This document shows positions 1-31,256 of a DNA stretch of 32,841 nt, piece after piece (position 1 is the first letter of the stretch; every line of letters starts with the position of its first letter). The notes beneath the pieces are model-generated. The model worked only from the letters and a program-made list of their open reading frames with translations, was not told where the DNA came from and did no database searches. The position numbers were made by a program, and so were the translations under genes. The stretch is from Comamonadaceae bacterium (GTDB lineage Bacteria > Pseudomonadota > Gammaproteobacteria > Burkholderiales > Burkholderiaceae_C), in the NCBI GenBank assembly GCA_003599455.1, contig QZKF01000048.1:1-32841 (forward strand), read 5' to 3'.

Positions 1-945
1 CATCGACCAGGTGATGGCCGAGAGCGAGCGCGGCGGCGCCTTGCGCGGCACCGCGCGCACGCTGCCGGGGCCGAGCAGGCCGGCGCGCAGCGCGGCCGCG
101 TCGCCGTTGAAGACCACGCTGTGGGCCGGCAGGCGCTCGCCGCTGGCGAGCTCCACACCGCACACGCGGCCCTGCTGCAGGTGGATGCGCGCGCAGGCGC
201 TGCGGTAGCGGAATACCGCGCCGCGCTCGCGCGCCAGCCGCTCCAGGCAGCGCGCCAGCGCGTGCATGCCGCCGTCGATGGACCACACGCCGTCGAGCTC
301 GACCTGCGCGATCAGCATCAGCGTGGCCGGTGCTTCCCACGGCGAGGAGCCGGTGTAGGTGGCGTAGCGGCCAAACAGCTGGCGCAGCCGCGGGTCGGTG
401 AAATGGCGGCCCAGGTTGTCCCACAGGCTGCGCATCGGGCCGAGCGCGGCCAACGTGGCCAGGCCGCGCAGCCCCAGGCCCACCGAGAGGCCGGCCATGC
501 TGGGCGCGGCGCTGCGGATGTACGGCCCTTCGAGCGCCTGGTACGCGGCCCTGGCCTGCGCGCAGAAGCCCTGGAAGCGTTTCGCTTCGTCCAGGCCCGC
601 GAAGCGCGCCACCGCGTTGAACGAGCGCGCCGGGTCGGCGAACAGTTCGAGCGAGCTGCCGTCGTCCCACCAGTGGCGCGCCAGCACCGGCAGCGGGCGG
701 ATGCGCAACTCGGCCTCCAGCGTGGTGCCCACCGCGGCGAAGATCCGGTCGAACACCCAGCGCATGGTGAACACCGTGGGGCCGCTGTCGATGGGCGCGC
801 CGTCCACCACCAACTGGCGCATCTTGCCGCCCGGCGCGTCGGCGGCTTCGAGCACGGTCACGTCCAGGCCCTGGTGCGCGAGCTGCAGCGCCGACACCAG
901 GCCCGCCATGCCCGCACCGACGACCACCACCCGGTGTTCAGCCAT
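1..945 (-). CDS. crtD: CrtD, hydroxy/methoxyneurosporene desaturase (partial, 3' end outside window)
   Basis: FAD-dependent carotenoid desaturase that introduces the C-3,4 double bond in the spheroidene/spirilloxanthin branch. The visible 315 codons begin MAEHRVVVVGAGMAGLVSAL, a Rossmann dinucleotide-binding motif (GxGxxG-type), then EAADAPGGKMRQL, typical of the CrtI/CrtD family. The segment around residues 45-60 (DSGPTVFTMRWVFDRIF) and the later LRQLFGRYATYTGSSPW are more CrtD-like than CrtI-like. The ATG at 945-943 overlaps the end of crtA by 8 bases, so the two are translationally coupled as the last visible genes of the puf-ispH-crtA-crtD run. The frame stays open to base 1, so roughly the last third of the protein is missing. 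CrtI is the alternative, judged less likely. Confidence 0.88.
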   Translation of the reverse strand, partial: MAEHRVVVVGAGMAGLVSALQLAHQGLDVTVLEAADAPGGKMRQLVVDGAPIDSGPTVFTMRWVFDRIFAAVGTTLEAELRIRPLPVLARHWWDDGSSLELFADPARSFNAVARFAGLDEAKRFQGFCAQARAAYQALEGPYIRSAAPSMAGLSVGLGLRGLATLAALGPMRSLWDNLGRHFTDPRLRQLFGRYATYTGSSPWEAPATLMLIAQVELDGVWSIDGGMHALARCLERLARERGAVFRYRSACARIHLQQGRVCGVELASGERLPAHSVVFNGDAAALRAGLLGPGSVRAVPRKAPPRSLSAITWSM

Positions 946-1759
946 GGGCGGTGTGCTCGGTGGGGGTGGCCGGCGGTGGCGGCGGTTCGGCCGGCTCGGG
1001 CGCCTCGGCGGAGCCGATGAGCGAGGGCGCGGGCCAGTGGCCGTGGTGCGCGAGCAGGCGCATGCGCACGAACAGCGACTCGGAAAAATAGCCATGGCGG
1101 TAGGCCGCCTCGATCGCGGCCTGGTGCGCGCCCTGGTGCGCGTAGGCCAGCATGGAGGGCGTGTCCTTCCACAGGCTGAAGGTGCACTGGCGCACCAGCG
1201 GCGCTTCGCCCAGGCCCATGGCCAGGGTGCAGCCCTGCGCGCTCTGCATGGCGGCCTGCGCGGCCGGCGCGTTGCGCCAGAACGCCATGGCCTTGGCCGG
1301 GCGGATGCTCGCGCGCGTGAGCGCGGCCAGCGGGCGCGGCGCGGCTTCGTCGTTGGCGGCGCGCGCGAAGCTGCCGAGCTGGGTGGCCGGCGTGGCGCCC
1401 CAGGCCTGCGCGTCCCACTGGCCGCGTGCCGAGAGCACTTCCAGCATGCCGCTCCAGAAGTCGCCCGCGCGCTCGCGCATGGCCTTCACGTGGGCGCCGG
1501 CGAGGAAGGCGCTGGCCTGGTCGGCGTGGTCGAACATGGCGATCAGGCCCTGGTGGCTCGCGCTGGGCCGCAGCCCGAAGCCGCCGCCGTGGCCGCTGCC
1601 CATGACCTTGGCGAAACACAGGCCGGGCGTGTCCTTGAGCGCGGAGGGGCCCTGCACCATGCGCATCCAGCCCCAGGCCTGGTGCTCGCGCAGGTAGTTC
1701 ACCAGCACCACGACCACCACCCCGGACAGGGTGATGACGTCGGGCGGGGTCTCCGTCAT
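938..1759 (-). CDS. crtA: CrtA, spheroidene monooxygenase
   Basis: Oxygenase that converts spheroidene to spheroidenone (2-keto group) under oxic conditions. The product is 273 residues, close to the family size. Recognisable family segments are the N-terminal VVVVVLVNY, residues 30-60 with GPSALKDTPGLCFAKVMGSG and GGFGLRP, and the C-terminal QCTFSLWKDTPSMLAYAHQ and YFSESLFVRM. The tail after about residue 245 is a Pro/Ala/Glu-rich extension with a run of prolines. It starts 9 bp after the ispH stop and its stop codon overlaps the crtD start. crtA together with crtD and crtF indicates a spheroidene/spheroidenone carotenoid set, which fits a facultatively oxic phototroph. Confidence 0.93.
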   Translation of the reverse strand: MTETPPDVITLSGVVVVVLVNYLREHQAWGWMRMVQGPSALKDTPGLCFAKVMGSGHGGGFGLRPSASHQGLIAMFDHADQASAFLAGAHVKAMRERAGDFWSGMLEVLSARGQWDAQAWGATPATQLGSFARAANDEAAPRPLAALTRASIRPAKAMAFWRNAPAAQAAMQSAQGCTLAMGLGEAPLVRQCTFSLWKDTPSMLAYAHQGAHQAAIEAAYRHGYFSESLFVRMRLLAHHGHWPAPSLIGSAEAPEPAEPPPPPATPTEHTAHG

Positions 1760-2741: not shown

Positions 2742-3842
2742 CTACTTCGCCGGCGCGGGGGCCGCGGCCGCCGGGGCAGCTTCGGCAGTGGGTGCCGCCG
2801 GTGCCGCGGCGGGCGCGGTGTACGGGCGGTAGGCCGCGAGCTCGGGGTGGTCCTTGAGCATGGGCGCACCGAACAGCGGCTTGTAGGCGCCCTGGTGGCA
2901 GGTGGCGCAGTTGAGCTTGGGCGCGTCGCCGAGCTCGCCCTTGCGCTCGGGCGGGAAGGTGCTGGCCAGCGGCTCCATGTAGGCGAGGTTGAGGTCGCGC
3001 GCCATCTGGATGCCGTGGTACGCCGTCACGCGCTGGGGCGGGCCGCCTTCCCAGTTGCCGAAGTTGCGGGTGTTGTGGCAGTAGGTGCAGTTCACGCCGA
3101 GCGAGGCCGACATGTGCGTCATCAGCCCGTAGGTCTTCTCGGTGCGCTGGATGCTCTCGCCCTTTCCGGTGGGCAGGGCGGTGGTGGCGCCGACGCGGAT
3201 CGGCTCCTTGCCCAGCAGGTAGGGCGTGAACGGGTCGTTCGGCAGCGAGGCCAGCTTCACGCTCTGCGCCGGCGCGTTCTGCCCGGCCTTGTCGCCCATG
3301 AAGTTGGAGCCATAGGGTTGCGCGTCGGCGGTGAACCAGATGTCCTTGGGCACGGGCTGGCCGCGGTGGCAGGTGTAGCAGGTCACGCCGGTCTCGGCCA
3401 CGTGCGTTTTCCAGTCGGTGTTGATGTGCTGGGTCATCTGCACCATGCGGCGCGCCACCACCTTGGTGTAGAGGCTGTCGTCGGCCAGGTTGGCCGGGTT
3501 GTGGCAGTAGTTGCAGCCCTGCTCGGGCGCAACCCAGGCGGTCATGTTGACCATGAGGCGGGTGAACTCGCCCACGCTCAGGTCACCGAGCACTTTCACG
3601 TTCTGGTAGACCTGCCCGGCCTTGGGGCCGTCGGCGCTGGCCGCGGGCATGGCCACCGGCGCCTGGTTGGCGGCCACGGTGGCTTCGTGCAGGCGCGGGT
3701 TGTAGACCTGGACCATGCCGGTGCCGCGGTAGCCTTGCTGCACGGTGTCCATGGGCGGGCGCTCGCAGGCGCCGAGCAGCACCAGCGAACCCAGGGCCGC
3801 CAGCCGCAGCCAGGCGCGTGTGGAGAAGAGGGTGGTTTTCAT
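2742..3842 (-). CDS. pufC: PufC, tetraheme cytochrome c subunit of the photosynthetic reaction centre
   Basis: Periplasmic tetraheme cytochrome bound to the reaction centre; it re-reduces the oxidised special pair. The product has 366 residues. A signal sequence with lipobox LLGAC puts the lipidated cysteine at residue 26. Four CxxCH heme-binding motifs lie at about residues 110-114 (CNYCH), 155-159 (CYTCH), 252-256 (CTYCH) and 312-316 (CATCH), with nearby methionines (MVQM, MTHM) as likely axial ligands. The last ~30 residues are a low-complexity Ala/Pro tail. The ATG shares one base with the pufM stop (TGATG), so the two are coupled. Heme attachment requires the Ccm system, whose whole operon lies at 15244-22227. 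Confidence 0.97.
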
Positions 3843-4819
3843 CACTTCGCTCCTGGGGCAAGGGCCGGGTCCATCACGGCGGGGAACACGTCGGGGTAGG
3901 GCGGCGCCACGCCATGCTTGATGGCCCAGAGGTACCAGTTGTCGACCACCGTGCCGGTGAGCAGGATGCCGATGCCGCCGACCAGCGGGCACAGCACGGC
4001 GAACCACCAGGCCCAGCGGTGGATGGATTCCATGGTGGCGTTGAAGCCCATGGTCCAGCGCCAGAAGAGGGCGGCGCGCTCGCTCGCGGTGCCGCGGTCC
4101 ACGATCTGCTCGATCTCGCGCTCGCCACCGAAGCGGCTCACCGCGAGGATGGTGGCGCCGTGCATGGCGAACAGCAGCGTGGCGCCGTACAGGAAGGCGA
4201 TCGAGAGCGCGTGGAACGGGTTGTAGAACAGGTTGCCGTAGCGCAGCGAGAAGGCGGCCGTCCAGTCCAGGTGGGGGAAGATGCCGAAGGGCACGGCCTC
4301 GCTCCACGAACCCATGAGCACCGGGCGGATCAGGCCGAGCACCAGGAACAGCCAGATCGCCGCCGCGAAGGCCCAGGCCACATGGGTGCCCATGCCGAGC
4401 ACGCGCGCGCGCCGGTAGGTGCGCACCCACCAGAGCATCACCGAGATGGTGAGGAACAGGCCGGCGATCTGCCACCAGCCGCCCTGGTTGAGCGGCGCCA
4501 GGCCCAGGCCGTGGTCGGGTCCGGGCGGCTCCAGCGACAGCCAGAACAGCTGGCGCACGAACTGGATCGGGTCGTAGTTGACCGAGGCCAGCATGTTCAT
4601 GCCCATGATGTTGATGGCCAGGATGCCGAACATCAGCGAGGCGATGCCCAGGCCACCGAGGTAGATCGGGCCGATCTGCGCGTTGCCCAGCTTGCCGAGC
4701 CAGTAGAACGCGGCCGGCTCGTCGCCGGTGCGCGGGCTGTTGCCGTGCGGCAGCGGCACGCCGTGGTGCAGCGGGCCGACGGCCTGCACGGTGGTGAAGA
4801 GGTTCTGGTATTGCGACAT
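3842..4819 (-). CDS. pufM: PufM, reaction centre M subunit
   Basis: Membrane core subunit of the type-II (quinone) photosynthetic reaction centre, pairing with PufL to hold the bacteriochlorophylls, bacteriopheophytins, quinones and non-heme iron. The product has 325 residues, starts [12 protein letters not shown] and has five hydrophobic segments. Family-typical stretches include [18 protein letters not shown] near the N-terminus, [20 protein letters not shown] around residue 200 (special-pair histidine region) and [19 protein letters not shown] near residue 270. A strong Shine-Dalgarno (AAGGAGA) lies 6 bases before the ATG. It follows pufL after 27 bp and overlaps pufC by one base. Confidence 0.98.
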
Positions 4820-4846: not shown

Positions 4847-5671
4847 TTAGCTCCAGATGGGCATGTTGAGCCACCAGCCCCACCACTCGGGCCAGCCGCG
4901 GCTCCAGAACGGGCCGCTGATCACGATGCACAGCGCGCTGAACAGCACGGCCGCCAGCGCCAGGAACAGGCCCAGGCGGTGGATGCCCAGGGTGCCGATG
5001 GAGTAGCCGATGGTGTCGCGGAAGAAGGTGTCCTCGTGCTCGGGCGTCTTCACCGTGCCACCGCCGCCGGGGTTGGTCGCCGAGAGGATCAGCGAGCCGT
5101 GCAGCGAGAGGGCGAAGGTGGTGGCGAAGAAGAAACTCACCGCGATCATGTGCGCGGGGTTGTAGTGGAAGTGCAGGTACTGGTAGCCCACGTTGGAGAC
5201 CCAGTCGAGGTGGCTGAAGATGCCGTAGGGGAAACCGTGGCCCCAGGCGCCCAGCAGCACCGGGCGGATCACGACCAGCGTGACATAGGCCAGGATGGCC
5301 ACGCTGAACGCGGCCGGCACGTGGTAGCCCATGCCCAGCTTGCGGCAGATCTCCACCTCGCGCAGCGCCCACGAACCGAAGGCGCCGATCGCGCACACGG
5401 TGATGAGCTGCCACAGGCCGCCTTCCATCAGCGGCGCGAAGCGCAGGCCGTAGGAGAGGTCGGGGGGCGCGATGCTGATCTGCCAGAGGTTCCAGGTCGG
5501 CCCTTGCGAGGCGCCCCAGAGAATCATGGCGGTGCCGAGGAACGCGAAGAACAGCGTCGTGACACCAAAGAAGCCGACATAGAACGGACCCACCCAGAAA
5601 TCGAACAGGTCGCCGCCAACCAGTGTTCCGCCTCGAACCCGGTATTTCTTTTCAAAGTTGAGCATGGCCAT
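4847..5671 (-). CDS. pufL: PufL, reaction centre L subunit
   Basis: Partner of PufM in the reaction-centre core. The 274-residue product begins [20 protein letters not shown], followed by [17 protein letters not shown], diagnostic for Puf[35 protein letters not shown] with the following PAHM, and [20 protein letters not shown] are further hallmark segments. Five membrane helices are expected and visible. The start has a strong AGGAGGG Shine-Dalgarno 6 bases upstream; a second ATG two codons later is possible. It is separated from pufA by a 118-bp spacer holding a perfect 11-bp hairpin. Confidence 0.98.
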
Positions 5672-5733
5672 GGATCGGCCCTCCTGTCTCGGATGGATTA
5701 GGTGCGCGCTTTTTTATTCGAGGGTGAGGGGGA

Positions 5734-5773
5734 GCAGATGCTGTGCTGGCCCACGCGCAGGGACAGCATCTGC
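5734..5773 (-). other. pufA-pufL intercistronic stem-loop
   Basis: A perfect 11-bp inverted repeat, GCAGATGCTGT (5734-5744) and ACAGCATCTGC (5763-5773), with an 18-base loop, lies 16 bp after the pufA stop. No U-run follows on the minus strand, so it is unlikely to be a plain terminator. In Rhodobacter a hairpin at the same place protects the pufBA part of the mRNA from 3'-5' decay, giving excess light-harvesting over reaction-centre protein. The same job is inferred here from position and structure. Confidence 0.8.
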
Positions 5774-5789
5774 ACACCTTCGGTGAAGT

Positions 5790-5984
5790 TCAGGACTTCA
5801 CTGCGGGAGTGGCCGCCGGCATGGTTTGTGCCGACTTCGCCGGACCCGCCTTGGGGCCGTCGAGCCAGTTGAATTTGTTCGTGCTGAGCAGGATGAGGTG
5901 AATCATCACGGCCACTGCGAACAGGAAAACGCCTTGGGCCACCATGGTCCTGAGCGGGTCGAAAAGTCGCCAAATTCTCCACAT
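5790..5984 (-). CDS. pufA: PufA, light-harvesting 1 alpha polypeptide
   Basis: Small single-span antenna protein that binds bacteriochlorophyll and carotenoid in the LH1 ring. It has 64 residues starting [15 protein letters not shown], the conserved alpha N-terminus. One hydrophobic helix runs from about residue 14 to 34 and contains the bacteriochlorophyll-ligating histidine H29 (MIHLILLST), followed by NKFNWLDG. The C-terminal ~20 residues are an Ala/Pro/Lys tail. A clear TAAGGAG Shine-Dalgarno is formed partly by the stop codon of the upstream 74-residue ORF, so translation of the two is probably linked. It is unusual that pufA is not directly next to pufB. Confidence 0.96.
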
Positions 5985-5996
5985 GATGTGAACTCC

Positions 5997-6221
5997 TTAA
6001 ATGATGTGGGACATGAGGGTGTAGACCGCGGCATGCACGCCCGAGAAGATGCTGGCCTTGTGCTCCGCGCCTGGCAGCCAGAGCTGCCAGTGCAGTCCGA
6101 CCAGCTGGCCGAGCATTGCAAGCGACAACAACAGCACGAAGCAGGGTGCAAAGATCAGCACGAACGACAACCTGTCGCCTCGGCTGGATGGCTTATGAGC
6201 CTCATAAGACATATCGTTCAT
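5997..6221 (-). CDS. Small membrane protein inserted between pufB and pufA (possible PufQ-like protein)
   Basis: A 74-residue ORF with a good Shine-Dalgarno (AAGGAAG) and GC-rich codon use like its neighbours. It begins 33 bp after pufB, and its TAA lies in the Shine-Dalgarno of pufA. The protein has a short polar N-terminus ending SSRGDRLS, a strong transmembrane helix at about residues 20-43, a WQLWLPGAEHK turn and a second hydrophobic C-terminal stretch (IFSGVHAAVYTLMSHII). It lacks the alpha/beta antenna signature (no LH1 histidine pattern with WRPWL or FNWL). Size, one helix and a hydrophobic tail after a conserved-looking turn loosely recall PufQ, a bacteriochlorophyll-delivery protein usually encoded before pufB. 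A PufX- or gamma-like LH1 accessory role is an alternative. Its existence as a gene is well supported; its function is not. Confidence 0.75.
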   Translation of the reverse strand: MNDMSYEAHKPSSRGDRLSFVLIFAPCFVLLLSLAMLGQLVGLHWQLWLPGAEHKASIFSGVHAAVYTLMSHII

Positions 6222-6254: not shown

Positions 6255-6398
6255 TCAGAGCCAGGGCCGCCAGAACCAGACCAAGAGATGGGCCACCACG
6301 GCAATCGCCGTGAACCCAATAAAGCCTTGGATGTAGTACTGGTGGAACTCCTGAGCTTCCTCGTCGGTCAGGCCGGATATGGATGTCCGTTGTGACAT
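6255..6398 (-). CDS. pufB: PufB, light-harvesting 1 beta polypeptide
   Basis: LH1 beta antenna protein of 47 residues, partner of PufA. The sequence runs [20 protein letters not shown], then a membrane helix and ends [12 protein letters not shown]37 is the bacteriochlorophyll ligand, H19 is the second conserved histidine, and the WRPWL end is the family hallmark. The ATG at 6398 is chosen because of the AAGGAG Shine-Dalgarno 7 bases upstream; the longer open frame has no family similarity. It is the first gene of the puf group, 138 bp after the end of bchZ. Confidence 0.97.
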
Positions 6399-6411: not shown

Positions 6412-6540
6412 TCAATAAGGCCTGGTGGCCTGCGTTGCGCCCAACCCGCGCAACCTGGGCAGCCGCGGCGACATGCCACGACATGGGGGAGACCCGGCCT
6501 GTCGGCTCGAATCGGAAGGGGGTGTCATGAGATCGCTCAT
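6412..6540 (-). CDS. Short ORF overlapping the bchZ stop, at the position where pufQ lies in Rhodobacter
   Basis: A 42-codon frame beginning [14 protein letters not shown] and ending ATQATRPY. Its ATG overlaps the bchZ stop as ATGA, so it could be translated by re-initiation. The peptide is Pro/Arg/Gly-rich with no membrane helix, so it is not PufQ. It ends 13 bp before the pufB ATG, and its 3' part coincides with two hairpins. It may be a leader peptide, a degenerate remnant or simply chance. Not recognised. Confidence 0.25.
6418..6453 (-). other. Twin hairpins in the leader before pufB
   Basis: Two adjacent inverted repeats lie 20-55 bases upstream of the pufB ATG: AGGCC/GGCCT (6418-6422 and 6427-6431, loop TGGT) and TTGCGC/GCGCAA (6435-6440 and 6448-6453, 7-base loop). 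Neither is followed by a U-run. They could be a 5' stabilising or processing structure that sets apart the puf messages from bchZ. This is inferred from position only. Confidence 0.4.
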
Positions 6541-8006
6541 GCGGTCTCTCCCAGGCCCAGCTCGTGGCCTGCGGTGTTGACATGGGATTCGTTCACGGCG
6601 GTGTCGCCGCTTTCGCGCGCGCGCCGCTCGGCCTCGTCGCGCAGGCGCTTGGCGGCCGAGATCTGCACCAGCACGGGCTGGCTGGAAACGAGTGCATGCA
6701 GCCGTGCCTGGGCCGGGTCTTCCCAGGGGGTGGACAGGCCGGCGGCCGCGCCGCGCGCGAGCGTCGGGTCGACCTTGTCCATGTCGGTGCCCAGCGGCAG
6801 GATGTGGAACAGCGCGTCGAACAGCGCGTTGCACACCTCCTGGATCAGGTAGGTCGCGCCGCTGTAGCCCATGAAGGGTGTGCCGGTGTGGCGGCGGATG
6901 ATGGCGCCCGGGAACGAGGCCGGGATGAAGGCCGCGCGCATCGGGCCGCTGGCACCGGCCTCGGCCAGGTACATGCGCTCGTTGTAGCTGCCGAACAGGA
7001 TCAGCGGTGTCTTCTTCTGCACCTGCTCGCGCACTGCGGCGTTGTCGGTCTTGGCACCGGGGATGCGCGGCACCGCGAAGCGGCAGGGCAGGCCCATTTC
7101 GGTTTCCAGGAAGTGCTGCAGGCCGCGCGTGTAGGTCTCGTTGGCCACCACCGCGAAGCTGGCGGTGGCGAAGAAGTCCTGCGTGACGCTGCGCCACAGG
7201 TCCCACACCGGCTTGATGGTGGTGTGCTTCTCGCGCTCGATGAAGGGTTCCGGGTCCAGGCCCAGCAGCTCGCCGAGCTTGCGCAGGAACTTGGTGGTGC
7301 TGTGCAGGCCGATCGGCGCCTGCAGGTAGGGCCGGTCCAGCGCCTCGCAGAGCATGCGGCCGAACTCGCGGTACATGCAGATGTTCACGTCGGCCTCGAC
7401 CAGGCGCGAGACCTCGGCCAGGTGGCTGCCGAGCGGGAACACCAGGTTGATGTCGGCGCCGATGCCCTGCACCAGGCGGCGGATTTCGGCCAGGTCGCTC
7501 GGGCTGTTGAAGGTGCCGTAGCAGGGGCCGATGATGTTGACGCGCGGCTTCTCGCCGGCCTTGCGCTCGCGCGGTGGCACCTTCTTCATGCCGTACTCGC
7601 TCCAGAGCCAGAACATCGCGCGGTTGGCGCACTGCCACTGGTCTTCGTCGATGGTGCGCGGCAGGAAGCGCATGAGGTTGGTGCCCTCGGGCGTCACGCC
7701 GCCGCCGATCATTTCGGCGATCGAGCCGGTGACCACCACCGCGGGCAGCTCGGGGTCGAGCACCGCATGCGCGCGCTTCATCGAGCCTTCGGTGCCTTCG
7801 CGGCCCAGCTGTTCTTCGGCCAGGCCGGTCACCACGATGGGCAGCTCGTGCGGGGGCAGGGCGTCGGTGTAGTGCAGCACCGAGGTGACGGGCAGGTTCT
7901 CGCAACCCACCGGGCCATCGATCACGACCTGCAGACCCTTGATGGCGGTGAAGACATACACCGCGCCCCAGTAGCCTCCTGCGCGATCGTGGTCGAGTAC
8001 GAGCAT
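6537..8006 (-). CDS. bchZ: BchZ, chlorophyllide a reductase subunit Z
   Basis: One of the two catalytic (NifDK-like) subunits of chlorophyllide a oxidoreductase, which reduces the C7-C8 bond of ring B in bacteriochlorophyll a synthesis. The 489-residue product starts [20 protein letters not shown]. It contains the [20 protein letters not shown] segment, with a cluster-ligand cysteine of the BchY/BchZ heterotetramer, and ends in the typical [16 protein letters not shown] region. It follows bchY after 27 bp; the order bchX-bchY-bchZ matches other purple bacteria. Its stop overlaps the ATG of a 42-codon ORF leading to pufB. Confidence 0.97.
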
Positions 8007-9582: not shown

Positions 9583-10590
9583 TCAGACCTCGTCGTAGAC
9601 GACTTCCAGGCTGGGCTTGAGGGTCTCTTTCTTGCCGCACATGTCGAACTGCGTGGCCGGTTCGAGCACCACGTCGCGACCCACCGAGGCGGCTGAAAAA
9701 AGGCCGAGCAGGCCGTCTTGAGACATGGGTTTTGGCCGCATGGGCGTGGAGGTCCCCACGTTCTCGGCCAGCTCGGCAAACAGGGGGCCCCACACGGATT
9801 CCGGGCGGCCGATGATTTCGTAGCTCGCGCTCTTGCGGCGGATGTCGTCGTCGGCCGGGATGACCGAGAGCACCGGGATGCCGACCTGCTCGGCAAAGGC
9901 CATGGCCTCGCCGGTGCCGTCGTCGCGGTTGATCACCATGCCGGCCACGCCGACGTTGCCGCCGAGCTTGCGGAAGTACTCGACCGCGCTGCACACGTTG
10001 TTGGCCACGTAGAGCGACTGCAGGTCGTTGGAGGCGACGACGATGACCTTCTGGCACATGTCGCGCGCGATCGGCAGGCCGAAGCCGCCGCAGACCACGT
10101 CGCCCAGGAAGTCGAGCAGCACGTAGTCGAAGCCCCAGTCGTGGAAGCCGAGTTTTTCGAGCAGCTCGAAGCCGTGGATGATGCCGCGCCCGCCGCAGCC
10201 GCGGCCCACCTCGGGGCCACCGAGTTCCATCGCGTAGACGCCGTCGCGCTTGAAGCACACGTCGCCGATCTGCACCGCTTCGCCGGCCAGCTTCTTCTTC
10301 GACGAGGTCTCGATGATGGTGGGGCAGGCCCGGCCGCCGAACAGCAGGCTGGTGGTGTCGCTCTTGGGGTCGCAGCCGATCAGCAGCACCTTCTTGCCCT
10401 GCTGGGCCATCATGTAGCTGAGGTTGGCCAGCGTGAAGCTCTTGCCGATGCCGCCCTTGCCGTAGATCGCGATGATCTGCGTCTCTTTCTTCACCTCGCC
10501 GGTGTGCACCGGCTCGGGCTCGATCGCCGCTTCCTGGCGCAGCTGTTCCATGAACTGGGCCGGTTGCACGTTGACAGGCAGTGAGTTCAT
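9583..10590 (-). CDS. bchX: BchX, chlorophyllide a reductase iron protein
   Basis: NifH-like ATP-dependent electron donor to BchYZ. The 335-residue product has the P-loop YGKGGIGKS at about residues 43-51, switch-like CDPKSDTT and CGGRG with a [4Fe-4S]-ligating cysteine, and VCGGFGLP carrying the second conserved cluster cysteine. The ~37-residue N-terminal extension before the P-loop (rich in Glu/Gln) is usual for BchX and distinguishes it from BchL. The ATG shares one base with the bchC stop (TGATG). Confidence 0.97.
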   Translation of the reverse strand: MNSLPVNVQPAQFMEQLRQEAAIEPEPVHTGEVKKETQIIAIYGKGGIGKSFTLANLSYMMAQQGKKVLLIGCDPKSDTTSLLFGGRACPTIIETSSKKKLAGEAVQIGDVCFKRDGVYAMELGGPEVGRGCGGRGIIHGFELLEKLGFHDWGFDYVLLDFLGDVVCGGFGLPIARDMCQKVIVVASNDLQSLYVANNVCSAVEYFRKLGGNVGVAGMVINRDDGTGEAMAFAEQVGIPVLSVIPADDDIRRKSASYEIIGRPESVWGPLFAELAENVGTSTPMRPKPMSQDGLLGLFSAASVGRDVVLEPATQFDMCGKKETLKPSLEVVYDEV

Positions 10591-11537
10591 CAGTGTCTCC
10601 AGTCCAGAACCATCTTCAAACAGTGCGGGTCGCCGAAGGCGGTCGCATACGCGTCGCCGGCGCGGGCCGGTGTCGCGGTGTGGGTGAGCAAGCCGTCGAG
10701 CGAGAGCCGGCCGGTCTGCACCAGTTCGGTCACGGCCAGCAGGTCGGGGCGCTTCCATTCGGCGGCCACCCGGATCTGCGCTTCGCGCATGAAGGCGGGG
10801 GCGTAGGCGAAGGAGATGTCCTGCTTGTAGAAGCCGGCCAGCACCACCTCGCCGCCCTTGTCCAGGCGCGGGATCACGCGGTGCAGGATGTCGGCGTCGC
10901 CGCTCACGTCGTAGATGGCGCGGTAGTTCTTGCGGTCGTCTTCGTCGGGGTGCACCACGCTGTAGCCCTCGGCACCGTCGCGGCGCTGGGCCTGCGTTTC
11001 CCACACCACCGGGGCCGGGGCGCCGGCGGCCACGGTCAGGCGCGCCAGCAGGCGGCCCATCACGCCATGGCCCACGATCAGGTCGGGTGGGGTGTCGGGC
11101 GCGCGGGTGCCGCCGTAGCTCACCGTGTGGTACGCGGTGGCGGCCAGCGCCAGCAGCACCATGGAAGCGCCGGGCGCGGCGTCGAGCCGCACCACGCGGC
11201 TGGCCTGCACCACCAGGCGCGAGCCGGCACCGCCGAACAGGTTGTGCACGCCTTCGAAGCTGTAGGAGCCGGGCACGAAGACGTGGTCGCCGATGGCCAG
11301 CTGGCAGTCGCCCTGGGTGCGCACCACACGGCCCACCGTTTCGTAGCCGGGCACCAGCGGGTAGCCCATGCCGGGGAAGGGCGGCATGCTGCCGTCCCAG
11401 AGCAGGCGCTCGGTGCCGGTGCTGATGCCGCTGTACGCCACTTCCACTTCCACGTCGCCGTCGCCGAGGCTGCGAAGATCCAGGGACTGCACTGCGAGAT
11501 TGCAGGGACTCTGGAACACGATGGCGTCGGCTTTCAT
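10590..11537 (-). CDS. bchC: BchC, bacteriochlorophyllide a dehydrogenase
   Basis: Medium-chain dehydrogenase that oxidises the C3 hydroxyethyl group to acetyl late in bacteriochlorophyll a synthesis. The 315 residues show the GroES-like N-terminus (SGISTGTERLLWDGSMPPFP, PLVPGYETVGRVV) and nucleotide-binding LIVGHGVMGRLLARL around residue 155. The zinc-binding cysteines of ordinary alcohol dehydrogenases are not evident, as usual for BchC. There is no clear Shine-Dalgarno before the ATG at 11537. The paired PpsR-type boxes lie directly upstream and reach into the end of crtF. Confidence 0.95.
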   Translation of the reverse strand: MKADAIVFQSPCNLAVQSLDLRSLGDGDVEVEVAYSGISTGTERLLWDGSMPPFPGMGYPLVPGYETVGRVVRTQGDCQLAIGDHVFVPGSYSFEGVHNLFGGAGSRLVVQASRVVRLDAAPGASMVLLALAATAYHTVSYGGTRAPDTPPDLIVGHGVMGRLLARLTVAAGAPAPVVWETQAQRRDGAEGYSVVHPDEDDRKNYRAIYDVSGDADILHRVIPRLDKGGEVVLAGFYKQDISFAYAPAFMREAQIRVAAEWKRPDLLAVTELVQTGRLSLDGLLTHTATPARAGDAYATAFGDPHCLKMVLDWRH

Positions 11538-15243: not shown

Positions 15244-15868
15244 ATGACCGCGGCGCTGGCGCTGAACCGGGTGGCCTGCGTGCGCGGCGGCCGCACCACT
15301 GTTCAGTGGCCTCGATGTGCGGCTCGAGGGCGGCCAGCTGCTGCGGGTGGCCGGCGCCAACGGCGCGGGCAAGACCAGCCTGCTGCGCCTGATGTGCGGG
15401 CTGCTGGCGCCCAGCGAGGGCGAGGTGCTGTGGCGCGGCCAGCCGCTGGCGGCGCAGCGCGAGGCCTGGGGCCGCGAGCTGGTCTACCTGGGCCACGCGG
15501 CCGCCCTGAAAGACGATCTTTCCCCGCTCGACAACCTGCAGACCGCCTGCACCCTGGGCGGCCAGGACGTGGCGCGCGCCGACGCGCTGCAGGCCCTGGC
15601 CGACGCCGGCCTGCGCGGCTTCGAACGCAGCACCGCGCGCCGCCTCTCGCAGGGCCAGCGCCGCCGCTGCGGCCTGGCGCGCCTGGTGCTCGCGCGATCG
15701 GCCCCGCTGTGGGTGCTCGACGAACCCTTCAACGCGCTCGACAGCGCCGCCACCGCCTGGCTCGAAGGCCTGGTGCGCGGCCAGCTGCGCCGCGGCGGCG
15801 CGGTGGTGCTCACCAGCCACCAGGGCGTCGCGCTCGACGACGCCGTGCACCAGGTGCTGACGCTGTGA
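15244..15868 (+). CDS. ccmA: CcmA, heme-exporter ATP-binding protein, with an apparent +1 frameshift
   Basis: ATPase of the CcmABCD complex in system I cytochrome c maturation. After the frameshift the frame has Walker A (GANGAGKTSLL), the signature LSQGQRRR and Walker B (LWVLDEPFNALD) followed by the switch histidine (SHQG). The first 18 codons from ATG 15244 (MTAALALNRVACVRGGRT) look like a CcmA N-terminus, but the continuation LFSGLDVRLEGGQLLRVAG is in the +1 frame. Removing one base at about 15298 restores a continuous family-like protein of ~207 residues. No homopolymer is present at the site. Without correction the only downstream start is a GTG at 15317, which would lose the first ~25 residues before Walker A. 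Sequencing error or real mutation cannot be told apart here. Confidence 0.85.
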
Positions 15869-16590
15869 ACACCGCCGTGGTGGCCACCCCCGCGAGCGAG
15901 GCCACCGCGCCCGGCTGGCTGGCCGGCCTGCGCTGCGTGTTCCTGCGCGACCTGCGCATCGCCGCGCGCCGGCGCACCGACGCGCTGGGCGCGCTGCTGT
16001 TCTTCGTGATGGTGGTGAGCCTGTTCCCGCTCGGCGTGGGGCCCGAGCCCGCGCTGCTGCGCACCATGGCGCCGGGCGTGGTGTGGGTGGCGGCGCTGCT
16101 GGCCTGCACGCTGCCGCTGGCGCGCCTGTTTGCCGACGACCACCAGGACGGCACGCTGGAGCAGATGCTGATCGGCGCGCACCCGCTGCCGCTGCTGGTG
16201 CTGGGCAAGATCGCCGCGCACTGGTGCAGCTCGGTGCTGCCGCTGGTGCTGGTCTCGCCGCTGCTGGCGCTGCAGTTCGACCTCCCGGCCTCGGCCATCG
16301 GCGTGCTGATGCTCTCGCTGCTGCTGGGCACGCCGGTGCTCAGCCTGGTCGGCGCCATCGGCGCGGCGCTCACGCTGGGCCTGCGCGGCGCCGGCGTGCT
16401 GATGTCGCTGCTGGTGCTGCCGCTGCTGATGCCGGTGCTGATTTTCGGCGCCGGCGCGGTCGAGGCGCACACCGCCGGCCTGGACGTGGCCGGCCATTTC
16501 TCCCTGCTCGGCGCGATGCTGCTGCTCTCCCTGCTGGCGGCGCCGCTGGTGGGCAGCGTGGCGCTGCGCATTTCGATGGAGTCCGCATGA
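15865..16590 (+). CDS. ccmB: CcmB, heme exporter membrane subunit
   Basis: Integral membrane partner of CcmA in the CcmABCD transporter-like complex that releases holo-CcmE. The 241-residue product begins at GTG 15865, overlapping the ccmA stop (GTGA). After a ~20-residue polar N-terminus come the family segment FLRDLRIAARRRTDALGALL and LFADDHQDGTLEQMLIGAHP around residue 90. About six hydrophobic helices follow. Its stop overlaps the ccmC start (ATGA). Confidence 0.95.
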   Translation: MNTAVVATPASEATAPGWLAGLRCVFLRDLRIAARRRTDALGALLFFVMVVSLFPLGVGPEPALLRTMAPGVVWVAALLACTLPLARLFADDHQDGTLEQMLIGAHPLPLLVLGKIAAHWCSSVLPLVLVSPLLALQFDLPASAIGVLMLSLLLGTPVLSLVGAIGAALTLGLRGAGVLMSLLVLPLLMPVLIFGAGAVEAHTAGLDVAGHFSLLGAMLLLSLLAAPLVGSVALRISMESA

Positions 16591-20512: not shown

Positions 20513-20986
20513 ATGCGCGCCGTGCTGCTGTTCATGTGGTGCCTGTTCGCCAGCCCGGTGGGCGCGCAGGACAGCACCGCCACACCGGCCGCGGCCGACC
20601 CCGCGCTGGAAGCGCGCGTGATGGCGATTGCCGAAGAGCTGCGCTGCCTGGTCTGCCAGAACGAGACCGTGGCGGCCTCCCACGCCGAGCTCGCAGTGGA
20701 CCTGCGCGGGCAGATCCGCGAGCAGCTGCGCGGCGGCCGCAGCCAGGCCGAGATCCTGGCCTTCATGTCGCAGCGCTACGGCGATTTCGTGCTCTACCGC
20801 CCGCCGCTGAAAGCCGGCACCGCGTTGCTCTGGCTCGGGCCCTTCGTGCTGCTTGCGCTGGGGGGCCTGCTGCTGGTGCGCCACCTGCGCCGGCGCGCCG
20901 CTGAGCCCGCGAGCGCGGAGGGCCTGTCGCCCGCCGAGCTGCAGCGCGCCCAGCGTCTGCTGGACGAAGCCGGAGGCCACCCATGA
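20513..20986 (+). CDS. ccmH: CcmH, cytochrome c maturation thiol oxidoreductase
   Basis: Periplasm-facing protein that works with CcmG and CcmF in presenting apocytochrome. The 157-residue product has a signal peptide (about 1-18), the LRCLVCQN active-site motif (C45 and C48), a SQRYGDFVLYRPP segment and one C-terminal membrane helix at about 100-122. It is the short form of CcmH (CcmL-like); the TPR part is encoded separately as ccmI. It overlaps ccmI by 4 bases. Confidence 0.96.
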   Translation: MRAVLLFMWCLFASPVGAQDSTATPAAADPALEARVMAIAEELRCLVCQNETVAASHAELAVDLRGQIREQLRGGRSQAEILAFMSQRYGDFVLYRPPLKAGTALLWLGPFVLLALGGLLLVRHLRRRAAEPASAEGLSPAELQRAQRLLDEAGGHP

Positions 20987-22227
20987 CGACGCTGCCCTTG
21001 TTCATCGCACTCGCCGCGGGCGTGCTCGCGCTGGCCCTGTGGCCCCTGCTGCAGGTGCTGCGGCGCACGCCCGCCGCGAACATGGCCCGCGCCGGTGCGC
21101 CGCACCTCGGCCTGCTGCACGCCGAGCGCGCGCAGCTCGATGCCGACCGCGCGGCCGGCCGCATCGGCCCCGACGAACACGCCCAGGCGCAGGCCGAGCT
21201 GGCCCGCCGCGTGCTGCAGGAAACCAGCGCCATCGAGCCCGTGAACACCGGCGCCCAGCACCGCAAGCTCACCGCCGCTGTCCTGCTGCTTGCGGTGCCC
21301 GCGCTCGCCGTGGGCCTGTACGGCACGCTGGGCCAGCCCGGCGCGCTGCGCGAGGCGGCGTCACCCGCCACCGAAGGCGCCACGCTGGCCGACGTGGACA
21401 CCATGGTGCGCCAGATGCAGCAGGCGCTGGAGCGCCGCAGCGGCACGGGCAACGAAGCCGAAGACGCACAGGCCTGGGCCATGCTCGCGCGATCGCAAGC
21501 CGGCCTGCAGCGCCACGCGCAGGCGGCCGAAAGCTACTCGCGCGCCATCGCGCTCGACCCGCGCAACCCGCACCTGCTGGCCGACCGCGCCGACCTCATC
21601 AGCCTGCTGCAGGGCCCGGGCGCCAGCGCCGAGGCGGCGCAGCTCGTGCAGCGCGCGCTGGCCATCGACCCACAACACCCCAAGGCCCTGGCGCTGGCCG
21701 GCCGCGCCGCCTACGAGCAGCAGGACTTCGCGGCCGCCGACGCGTACTGGCGCCGCGCCCGCGCCGTGGCGCCGCCGGGCAGCGCGTTTGCCGACGGCCT
21801 GGACCGCAGCATCGAAGCGGCCCGCGCGGGGCTGCAGGCGAATGCATCGGCCGGCGCCAGCACCGCAACAGCGGCCAGCGCACCGGCCGGCATCAGCGGC
21901 CGCGTGGAAATCGCCCCCGCGCTGCGCGAGCGCCTGCAACCGGGCGACACCCTGTTCATCATCGCCCGCACCCCCCAGGGCCCGCGCCTGCCGCTGGCGG
22001 TGCTGCGCCTGCCGGCCACGGCCGCGCCCACCGAGTTCGCGCTGGGCGACGAACACGCCATGGCGGCCGACCACAAGCTCTCGGGGCAGGCGCAGGTGGT
22101 GGTGGAAGCACGCGTGAGCCGCTCGGGGAATGCGATGCCGCAGGCGGGCGATGTGCTGGGCAGGACCGGCACCATCGCCAGCACCGCGCGCGGCGTGCGG
22201 GTGGTGGTGGATCAGGTCGTGCCCTGA
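20983..22227 (+). CDS. ccmI: CcmI, cytochrome c maturation TPR protein
   Basis: Apocytochrome chaperone. The 414 residues comprise two N-terminal membrane helices (about 5-25 and 92-112) flanking a cytoplasmic Arg/Ala-rich loop. TPR-like repeats follow (DAQAWAMLARSQAGLQRH, AESYSRAIALDPRNPHLL and ALAIDPQHPKALALAGRAA). The C-terminal beta-rich domain begins with ISGRVEIAPALRERLQPGD and ends with GVRVVVDQVVP. The last nine codons with the stop are in the 31-bp sequence repeated at 25019-25049, beside the end of the MFS gene. Confidence 0.93.
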   Translation: MTTLPLFIALAAGVLALALWPLLQVLRRTPAANMARAGAPHLGLLHAERAQLDADRAAGRIGPDEHAQAQAELARRVLQETSAIEPVNTGAQHRKLTAAVLLLAVPALAVGLYGTLGQPGALREAASPATEGATLADVDTMVRQMQQALERRSGTGNEAEDAQAWAMLARSQAGLQRHAQAAESYSRAIALDPRNPHLLADRADLISLLQGPGASAEAAQLVQRALAIDPQHPKALALAGRAAYEQQDFAAADAYWRRARAVAPPGSAFADGLDRSIEAARAGLQANASAGASTATAASAPAGISGRVEIAPALRERLQPGDTLFIIARTPQGPRLPLAVLRLPATAAPTEFALGDEHAMAADHKLSGQAQVVVEARVSRSGNAMPQAGDVLGRTGTIASTARGVRVVVDQVVP

Positions 22228-30350: not shown

Positions 30351-31256
30351 TCAACCCACCTGCTGAACGACCAACTCCACCACCCGCCCAGGCCGCTCCT
30401 CATGCGCCAGGTGCCCCAGCCCGTCGAGCTGCACGCAGGCCCCGCGCGCCGCCGGCAGCAGGCGGGCCAGCACGCGGGGTGCCTGCTCGGGGGGCACGGT
30501 GCGGTCGCGGGTGCCCACGATCAGGTCCATGGGCACCGTGAGCTGCGGCAGGTGGTTCGACAGCGTCTGCAGGTCCCAGTTGGCCATCATGCCGAGCGCG
30601 CCGGCCGCGTGCGCGGGGCTGCGCACCAGGCGCTGGTAGAGCGCGATGCCGGTGGCGTCCAGCGTGGAGCCGGTGCCCTGCAGCAGGCGCTGCAGCACGG
30701 CGGGTTCGTTGGCGTGCCAGGCAAACAGGCGCGGCACCAGCGGGGCCGAGGCCAGCAGCTTGGCCACCGGCGAAAAGAACTGGCCGGCCAGGCCGCCCAG
30801 CGGCAGCAGCGCGGCGTTCAGGCCGATCAGGCGGCGGGGTGTGATGAGGCCGTCCAGGCACATGCGCACCGCGATCGCCGCGCCGGCCGAGTGGCCCACC
30901 ACCAGCGAGGGGCTCAGGCGCAGCGCTTGCAGCAGGCCGTGCACCGCGCGCGCCATGCCCGGCAGGGTGAGCTGCGGTGAACCCACACCGCCCGGCGGCA
31001 TGCCGGTGAAGGCGTGGCCCGGCAGGTCGAGCGAGAGCACCTCGGCGTGCCGCGCGAGCAGCGGCGCCACATCGCGCCACGAATGGGTGGAGGCGCCGGT
31101 GCCGTGCAGCAGCAGCGCGCAGGGCGCGCCCGGCCGGGGCCCGGCGAGGTGCTGCACATGCCAGTGCAGGCCACCGGCCTGCACGAAGCGGCTGTGCTGG
31201 CGCAAGGGCCAGTCCAGGCCGTCGACGTCCCAGTTCAGGTCGTTGGGGTTCGCCAT
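30351..31256 (-). CDS. bchO: BchO, alpha/beta-hydrolase associated with Mg-chelatase
   Basis: Alpha/beta-hydrolase fold protein of 301 residues always found with bchI/bchD in purple bacteria; an accessory role in magnesium insertion into protoporphyrin is assumed. Seen are the N-terminal DGLDWPLRQHSRFVQAGGLH, oxyanion-hole region LLLHGTGASTHSWRDVAPLL at about 47-66, LDLPGHAFTGMP, and the nucleophile elbow VVGHSAGAAIAV near residue 120. The acid/histidine part lies in VGTRDRTVPPEQ and GLGHLAHEERP. It starts 12 bp after the bchD stop. Confidence 0.92.
   Translation of the reverse strand: MANPNDLNWDVDGLDWPLRQHSRFVQAGGLHWHVQHLAGPRPGAPCALLLHGTGASTHSWRDVAPLLARHAEVLSLDLPGHAFTGMPPGGVGSPQLTLPGMARAVHGLLQALRLSPSLVVGHSAGAAIAVRMCLDGLITPRRLIGLNAALLPLGGLAGQFFSPVAKLLASAPLVPRLFAWHANEPAVLQRLLQGTGSTLDATGIALYQRLVRSPAHAAGALGMMANWDLQTLSNHLPQLTVPMDLIVGTRDRTVPPEQAPRVLARLLPAARGACVQLDGLGHLAHEERPGRVVELVVQQVG

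What the first reader, a model, noticed from the sequence alone, without database searches (positions are those of the whole stretch)
5997..6221. A 74-residue membrane protein gene sits between pufB and pufA
The alpha and beta antenna genes form an equimolar pair and are normally adjacent. Here a well-formed small gene with its own Shine-Dalgarno separates them, and its stop codon lies in the pufA ribosome site. Its stoichiometry should therefore approach that of the LH1 subunits. It has one strong helix plus a hydrophobic tail and no antenna signature. It may be a displaced PufQ-like protein or an unrecognised LH1 accessory subunit comparable in role to PufX or the Blastochloris gamma peptide. 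The gene is seen in the sequence; the role is inferred.
Basis: partly seen in the sequence, partly recalled or inferred. Interest (0 to 1): 0.72.

Follow-up and report, generated by a model that had tools for sequence, protein, structure and literature searches.

The report
Pigment-less twin of an antenna protein
The small gene between pufB and pufA encodes a relative of the light-harvesting beta protein that has lost the histidine which holds the pigment, and it is likely an overlooked, pigment-free building block of the light-harvesting ring in phototrophic Burkholderiales bacteria.

Summary
The gene is real, conserved and under purifying selection. It precedes pufA in all 80 named loci kept by a scan with this ORF, and in 37 of 45 assessable genomes found independently through pufL. 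In Rubrivivax gelatinosus and Roseateles depolymerans the literature calls the ORF at this place ORF2 and ORF74, function unknown. It is not PufQ. It is a paralogue of the LH1 beta polypeptide (PufB): profile comparison with long, tail-bearing PufB gives 99.3-99.4% probability over 60-68 gap-free columns, and the transmembrane and tail halves match separately. The bacteriochlorophyll-ligating histidine, kept in 114 of 114 PufB, survives in 1 of 105 ORF74 sequences (Gln in 88). The C-terminal tail is the most constrained part. Tail and gene are complementary: 37 of 37 genomes with ORF74 have a short PufB (47-50 aa); 5 without it carry the tail on PufB itself (76-78 aa); 3 have neither. Both main arrangements occur within one genus. 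Best reading: pufB duplicated, one copy kept the pigment, the other kept the tail and likely serves as a pigment-free LH1 subunit. Role, dose and location are inferred; no solved structure with this protein was found.

The parts
5997..6221 (-). ORF74: 74-aa PufB paralogue; hydrophobic stretch about residues 19-43, W45..W48-LPGAE linker, predicted C-terminal helix about 59-73
   Evidence: helices predicted at low confidence
6255..6398 (-). pufB, LH1 beta, 47 aa, short form ending at WRPWL
5790..5984 (-). pufA, LH1 alpha, 64 aa
6228..6235 (-). Shine-Dalgarno-like AAAGGAAG of ORF74
   Evidence: sequence
5993..5998 (-). Shine-Dalgarno-like AAGGAG of pufA, overlapping the ORF74 stop codon
   Evidence: sequence; gap from ORF stop to pufA start 9-22 nt in 116 loci, SD-like motif in 115 of 116
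5734..5773 (-). hairpin after pufA (11-bp perfect arms), candidate end or stabiliser of a pufB-ORF74-pufA mRNA
   Evidence: sequence; fold of 5680-5795 z -2.61, 2 of 200 shuffles as stable; role inferred
4847..5671 (-). pufL, downstream in the same operon
3842..4819 (-). pufM, downstream in the same operon
   Evidence: named from recall and its 28-32% match to pufL
6537..8006 (-). bchZ, upstream of pufB
   Evidence: name from recall and gene order

Best explanation
ORF74 is a paralogue of the LH1 beta polypeptide PufB that has lost the bacteriochlorophyll-ligating histidine but kept a C-terminal extension, and it likely works as a pigment-free third subunit of the LH1 ring whose predicted tail helix would do in trans what the same tail does in cis on long PufB proteins. 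Shown by sequence: homology to long PufB, loss of the histidine, constraint on the tail, and complementary distribution of tail and gene. Inferred: an ancestral pufB with a tail was duplicated; one copy shed the tail and stayed the pigment binder, the other shed the histidine and the N-terminal motif and kept the tail. Inferred: because it is translated between the beta and alpha genes, it is made at close to alpha-beta dose and packs with its helix parallel to beta, in or against the outer wall of the ring, bracing the periplasmic edge and affecting ring closure and quinone passage.
For: Profile-profile, ORF74 vs long PufB: 99.4%, E 1.2e-21, 68 columns and 99.3%, E 5e-20, 60 columns, both without gaps; TM halves alone 98.2%, tail halves alone 96.5%; 40 column shuffles scored at most 18.0 against 107.9 for the whole, 13.7 against 63.0 and 13.2 against 34.3 for the halves. 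Direct bridge: ORF74 of L137 and long PufB of L143, both genus g30, 34 of 73 identical without gaps, E 6e-25. For 117 of 117 ORF74 loci the best-scoring class is long Burkholderiales PufB; PufA reaches E<=1e-3 for 2 of 117. PDB search with the ORF74 profile: the 25 sequences at E<=0.01 are all LH antenna chains, beta-type where named, best 8z81_B 1.5e-15. In the window's own genome the ORF74 profile finds only ORF74 and pufB. Histidine: 114 of 114 PufB, 1 of 105 ORF74. Median dN/dS: ORF74 0.37; by part N-term 1.02, TM 0.40, tail 0.26. Distribution: 37 ORF74 with short PufB, 5 long PufB without ORF, 3 neither, 1 not assessable, of 46. Transcription: ORF74 of R. depolymerans is in the major 1-kb puf transcript with pufB and pufA and third in the table of genes reduced in the sigma-factor mutant (PMC10037100).
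Against: No protein evidence: I found no report of this polypeptide in a core complex, and I recall no third small LH1 polypeptide from Rubrivivax, which would be odd if it were equimolar. Three genomes (g68) have a short PufB and no ORF74, so the tail is not indispensable unless their upstream PufQ-like ORF replaces it. That PufQ-like group also matches ORF74 (96.9%; E<=1e-3 for 96 of 117 loci). Gln at the ligand site is itself conserved (88 of 105) and could ligate a chlorin, so 'pigment-free' is not proven. AlphaFold2 models are weak (mean pLDDT 64 and 70) and Foldseek is not significant. Charge distribution does not settle topology (N-terminus more positive in 40 of 105). The arrangements are interleaved on the PufL tree, so one clean duplication is not demonstrated. 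ORF74 itself has no Pfam or NCBIfam hit.
Confidence: 0.6

Rival explanations
1. Ring-gap subunit: one copy of ORF74 per core takes a beta-like place, cannot bind bacteriochlorophyll, and so stops ring closure and keeps a quinone gate open, like PufX or protein-W.
For: A beta-like helix without the ligand would break the pigment chain (inference); PufX and protein-W are precedents for gap subunits (PMC10214105, passages). The PDB listing shows entry 8k5o with one copy of a beta-domain chain (8k5o_4) beside 16 copies of another beta (8k5o_x) (its paper was not seen).
Against: A gene inside the pufBA segment is expected at antenna dose, not one per reaction centre (inference). Whether the Burkholderiales ring is closed was not tested here.
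Confidence: 0.18
2. Assembly factor: ORF74 binds transiently during LH1 assembly or bacteriochlorophyll delivery, as proposed for PufQ (recalled), and is absent from the mature core.
For: PufQ over the Pfam cut-off occurs in 13 of 398 phylum genomes, 12 of them in one family, and not in the window's genome. The PufQ-like ORFs upstream of pufB in g68 and in other classes match the ORF74 profile at 96.9%. ORF74 vs PufQ scores 24.5 against a shuffled maximum of 15.8. A profile of the PufQ-like ORFs finds in the window's genome only ORF74, weakly (17.9 bits, E 0.011).
Against: Much closer to long PufB than to either PufQ group; the PufQ-like alignment has a 5-column gap at the W..WLPG motif that ORF74 and PufB share; a transient helper need not be made at antenna dose.
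Confidence: 0.13
3. A second true antenna beta: Gln ligates bacteriochlorophyll and ORF74 pairs with PufA as an alternative beta.
For: Gln is conserved at the ligand site (88 of 105) and both Trp are kept in 104 and 101 of 105; JGI's own labels of 54 homologues 'light-harvesting complex 1 beta chain'.
Against: Thr, Lys, Ser, Leu or Gly stand there in 16 of 105; the EFH histidine and the Pro of WRPW are lost; the N-terminus evolves at dN/dS about 1.
Confidence: 0.06
4. A decaying duplicate kept only as a translational spacer that tunes the beta:alpha ratio.
For: Its stop overlaps the pufA ribosome site; N-terminal dN/dS is about 1.
Against: Tail dN/dS 0.26 and near-invariant W45, PGAE, V62, AVY and MS residues in 71 aligned sequences require a functional protein.
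Confidence: 0.03

Closest known systems
LH1 beta polypeptide PufB, long form with C-terminal tail (PDB sequences 8z81_B, 9m8m_B, 7xxf_B; Burkholderiales L148, L143)
   Same: Same length class (74 vs 76-78 aa), same W..W-LPG linker, same tail motif, gap-free profile alignment, same operon
   Different: ORF74 lacks the pigment histidine, the EFH histidine, the Pro of WRPW and the SGLT..EA N-terminal motif
ORF2 of Rubrivivax gelatinosus and ORF74 of Roseateles depolymerans
   Same: Same place before pufA; the homologue of R. gelatinosus DSM 1709 was found here (L072, 55% over residues 10-74)
   Different: The 2025 paper (strain IL144) calls ORF2 of unknown function and, in the section read, compared it with PufA proteins only and rejected that origin (PMC12817894 section 8). 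The IL144 and R. depolymerans sequences were not compared here
PufQ (PF05398) and PufQ-like ORFs upstream of pufB
   Same: Small, one hydrophobic stretch followed by a second C-terminal stretch, puf operon; PufQ-like ORFs score 96.9% in profile comparison
   Different: No Pfam hit, weaker profile match than long PufB, different place, no W..WLPG motif
PufX, protein-W, protein-U and gamma subunits of RC-LH1
   Same: Possible role as a non-antenna LH1 subunit
   Different: None appears among the PDB sequence hits; PufX is proposed to be related to the PufC N-terminus and gamma-like chains run opposite to alpha and beta (PMC9640540, abstract and passages)

Membership tests
LH1/LH2 antenna beta (PF00556, NF040862) | Match to the curated family model | tested here: not met
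   No Pfam or NCBIfam family up to E 10
LH1/LH2 antenna beta (PF00556, NF040862) | Common descent with PufB | tested here: met
   99.3-99.4% vs long PufB, shuffled controls far below; PDB hits at E<=0.01 are antenna chains
LH1/LH2 antenna beta (PF00556, NF040862) | Central bacteriochlorophyll-ligating histidine | tested here: not met
   1 of 105 ORF74 vs 114 of 114 PufB; Gln39 in the window
LH1/LH2 antenna beta (PF00556, NF040862) | Binds pigment and pairs with alpha | not testable with these tools
   needs biochemistry
PufQ | PF05398 match | tested here: not met
   no hit; best in own genome 15.9 bits against cut-off 22.1, in a 782-aa frame on another contig
PufQ | Gene between bchZ and pufB | tested here: not met
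   lies after pufB in 79 of 79 named loci that hold pufB
PufX | Match to a curated PufX model | tested here: not met
   no Pfam or NCBIfam family at all; that such a model exists is recalled
LH1 gamma / gamma-like | Sequence similarity to solved gamma chains | tested here: inconclusive
   no gamma chain named among the hits, but such chains are short
LH1 gamma / gamma-like | Helix antiparallel to beta | tested here: inconclusive
   charge bias gives no verdict; beta homology suggests parallel

The most novel reading that the evidence does not exclude
Burkholderiales invented a 'blank' antenna beta: a duplicated PufB that gave up its pigment to become a dedicated structural or quinone-gate subunit of the LH1 ring, splitting antenna and tail functions between two genes. 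It would be a non-antenna LH1 subunit derived from the antenna polypeptide itself, in phototrophs for which the sequence searches here showed no solved core complex that contains it.
Probability: 0.5. Interest if true: 0.8.

Novelty: new variant of a known kind. Interest (0 to 1): 0.64.

Why it matters
It gives an identity to a puf-operon gene listed as of unknown function in Rubrivivax gelatinosus, and predicts that RC-LH1 cores of phototrophic Burkholderiales contain an uncounted subunit. If it is a pigment-free beta, it shows how an antenna ring can recruit its own polypeptide for structure or quinone exchange, and species of one genus that carry long PufB instead of ORF74 provide a natural control.

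Tried and rejected

Void or limited results: the PufQ rows are void (empty file, old output read) and the script then stopped with an error; PufQ was redone. Dropped rows: named loci L045 and L068 (no pufL); L159 not assessable; G816 of the 31 phylum phototrophs not inspected; L163 left out of the tree (short). One search kept 80 of 170 relatives; one search scored at most 14 candidates per genome. The order and named sets overlap; distinct sequences were used for the histidine count. dN/dS by part rests on other pair sets (2407, 3475, 2772) than the whole-gene value (1741 of 6670), and pairs are not independent. Between drafts the rivals' odds were lowered so that all five sum to 1; no finding changed.

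Full report
The observation. The 74-aa ORF at 5997-6221 (-) is present as described, between pufB (6255-6398) and pufA (5790-5984), with AAAGGAAG six bases before its start and a stop codon inside the AAGGAG of pufA. pufB and pufA match their NCBIfam equivalogs; the ORF has no Pfam or NCBIfam hit.

It is conserved and keeps its place. A protein search gave 54 homologues and a 71-sequence profile gave 1440 proteins, PufB relatives among them. Among 100 relatives searched, 22 rows have E below 1e-5; all 22 lie in puf operons, 21 as the separate ORF and one (L022) as a long PufB. A scan of named genomes found 170 relatives and kept the best 80; in all 80 the ORF directly precedes pufA, and in 79 of 80 pufB is seen directly before it (the remaining contig, L086, holds no pufB). 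They include Rubrivivax gelatinosus DSM 1709, R. benzoatilyticus, Hydrogenophaga flava, Piscinibacter aquaticus, Aquincola tertiaricarbonis and Methylibium sp. Because these were found with the ORF itself, the independent figure is the pufL survey below. The window's genus is probably Hydrogenophaga: G029 of the same genus matches the Hydrogenophaga sp. IBVHS1 contig in length and place.

Survey. pufL occurs in 46 of 399 sampled genomes of the order. Of these, 37 have a short PufB (47-50 aa) plus the ORF, 5 have no such ORF but a long PufB (76-78 aa), 3 (genus g68) have a short PufB, no ORF at this place and a PufQ-like ORF before pufB, and 1 contig is not assessable. In genus g30, three genomes carry long PufB and five carry ORF74. 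Outside the order, 26 of 27 phototrophs in the phylum sample were inspected: 13 long and 13 short PufB, and no ORF74-scoring ORF between pufB and pufA. A profile search of 398 phylum genomes found the separate gene in the 4 Burkholderiales phototrophs present; the other rows are mostly PufB itself, some PufQ-like ORFs, and one 322-aa frame in a genome without pufL.

What it is. The extended PufB of the ORF-less genomes ends in the same tail as ORF74. Profile comparison of ORF74 with long PufB gives 99.4% (E 1.2e-21, 68 gap-free columns; with other alignments 99.3%). The two halves match separately (TM 98.2%, tail 96.5%), and 40 column shuffles of each never came near the observed scores. Short PufB gives 94-95%, PufA 6.5%, PufQ 39.5%, the upstream PufQ-like ORFs 96.9% with a gap where ORF74 and PufB share W..WLPG. 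Within genus g30, ORF74 of L137 and long PufB of L143 are 47% identical over 73 residues. For all 117 loci compared the best class is long Burkholderiales PufB (median 58 bits), ahead of alphaproteobacterial long PufB (46), short PufB (37) and PufQ-like ORFs (32). With the ORF74 profile, the 25 PDB sequences at E<=0.01 are all antenna chains.

What changed. At the position of the bacteriochlorophyll ligand (identity of that histidine is established knowledge of the LH family), 114 of 114 distinct PufB have His; of 105 distinct ORF74, 88 have Gln, 8 Thr, 3 Lys, 2 Ser, 2 Leu, 1 Gly and 1 His. The EFH histidine and the Pro of WRPW are lost, both Trp are kept (104 and 101 of 105). Median pairwise dN/dS is 0.37 for ORF74, 0.17 for pufB and 0.21 for pufA over 1741 of 6670 pairs (pairs are not independent); within ORF74 the tail is most constrained (0.26), then TM (0.40), and the N-terminus is free (1.02). 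The tail is moderately amphipathic as a helix (shuffle p 0.013 in the window; p<0.05 in half of 105).

How it likely works. Selection holds the tail, which other beta proteins carry in cis. The complementary pattern suggests duplication and division of labour: PufB keeps pigment binding, ORF74 keeps the tail. The operon place, the ribosome sites and the hairpin after pufA suggest antenna-level synthesis; in Roseateles depolymerans ORF74 shares the major 1-kb transcript with pufB and pufA (PMC10037100, passages read). I therefore favour a pigment-free LH1 subunit; a single ring-gap copy and an assembly factor are the main rivals. Incorporation, dose and topology are inferred.

Weak points. On the PufL tree long-PufB and ORF74 genomes are interleaved, so the change happened more than once, was reversed, or the operon moved between lineages. 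Structure models are weak. The three g68 genomes lack both forms of the tail. A PufQ-like profile also touches ORF74 weakly in the window's genome. I saw no protein-level evidence.

Literature and novelty. The gene is described as an ORF of unknown function in R. gelatinosus (ORF2); the authors asked whether it gave rise to PufA2 and rejected that (PMC12817894, section 8 read in full). Some homologues carry a JGI label 'light-harvesting complex 1 beta chain' (8 of 54 rows), so an automatic pipeline has already placed it near beta. In the ten paper searches of the open-access library I saw no title, abstract or passage that identifies it as a histidine-less beta; the older papers (Nagashima 1994, recalled; Suyama 2002, not held) could not be read. 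In the PDB sequence searches the closest L chain is 9m8m, and no chain matched ORF74 better than the beta chains.

Noticed in passing
L135, L140, L150 (Burkholderiales genus g68); L166-L171, L183, L187, L189 (other classes): A PufQ-like small ORF with a hydrophobic stretch and a C-terminal S-[VI]-[FL]-x-E-A stretch sits between bchZ and pufB; the one scanned has no Pfam PufQ match. The group scores 97% against the ORF74 profile and 95% against long PufB, so it may be a further branch of the same group.
   Followed up: partly
L143, L148, L153 versus L137, L138, L141, L145, L158 (genus g30): Within one genus some species carry long PufB and others short PufB plus ORF74: a natural experiment on the tail.
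   Followed up: partly
L146, L151, L158, L164: An unusual PufA and PufB pair (MWRYWRIVDPRKAII...; NPSGLTD.ECQEFH...) accompanies ORF74 in these genomes.
   Followed up: no
P0055, P0057 (metagenome proteins): 131-132 aa proteins that read as PufB followed by ORF74; true fusion or frame error is open.
   Followed up: no
window 5734-5773: Perfect 11-bp hairpin just after pufA, likely a processing or stabilising element of the pufB-ORF74-pufA mRNA.
   Followed up: partly
L105, L065: MAG records titled Bordetella parapertussis and Candidatus Fonsibacter lacus carry this Burkholderiales-type puf operon; the titles are probably wrong or the bins mixed.
   Followed up: no
window 938-1759, 1769-2569, 10590-11537, 30351-31256 (- strand); 15244-16590, 20983-22227 (+ strand): crtA-like (below its curated cut-off), ispH, bchC and bchO around the operon, and ccmB and ccmI cytochrome c maturation genes on the other strand.
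   Followed up: no
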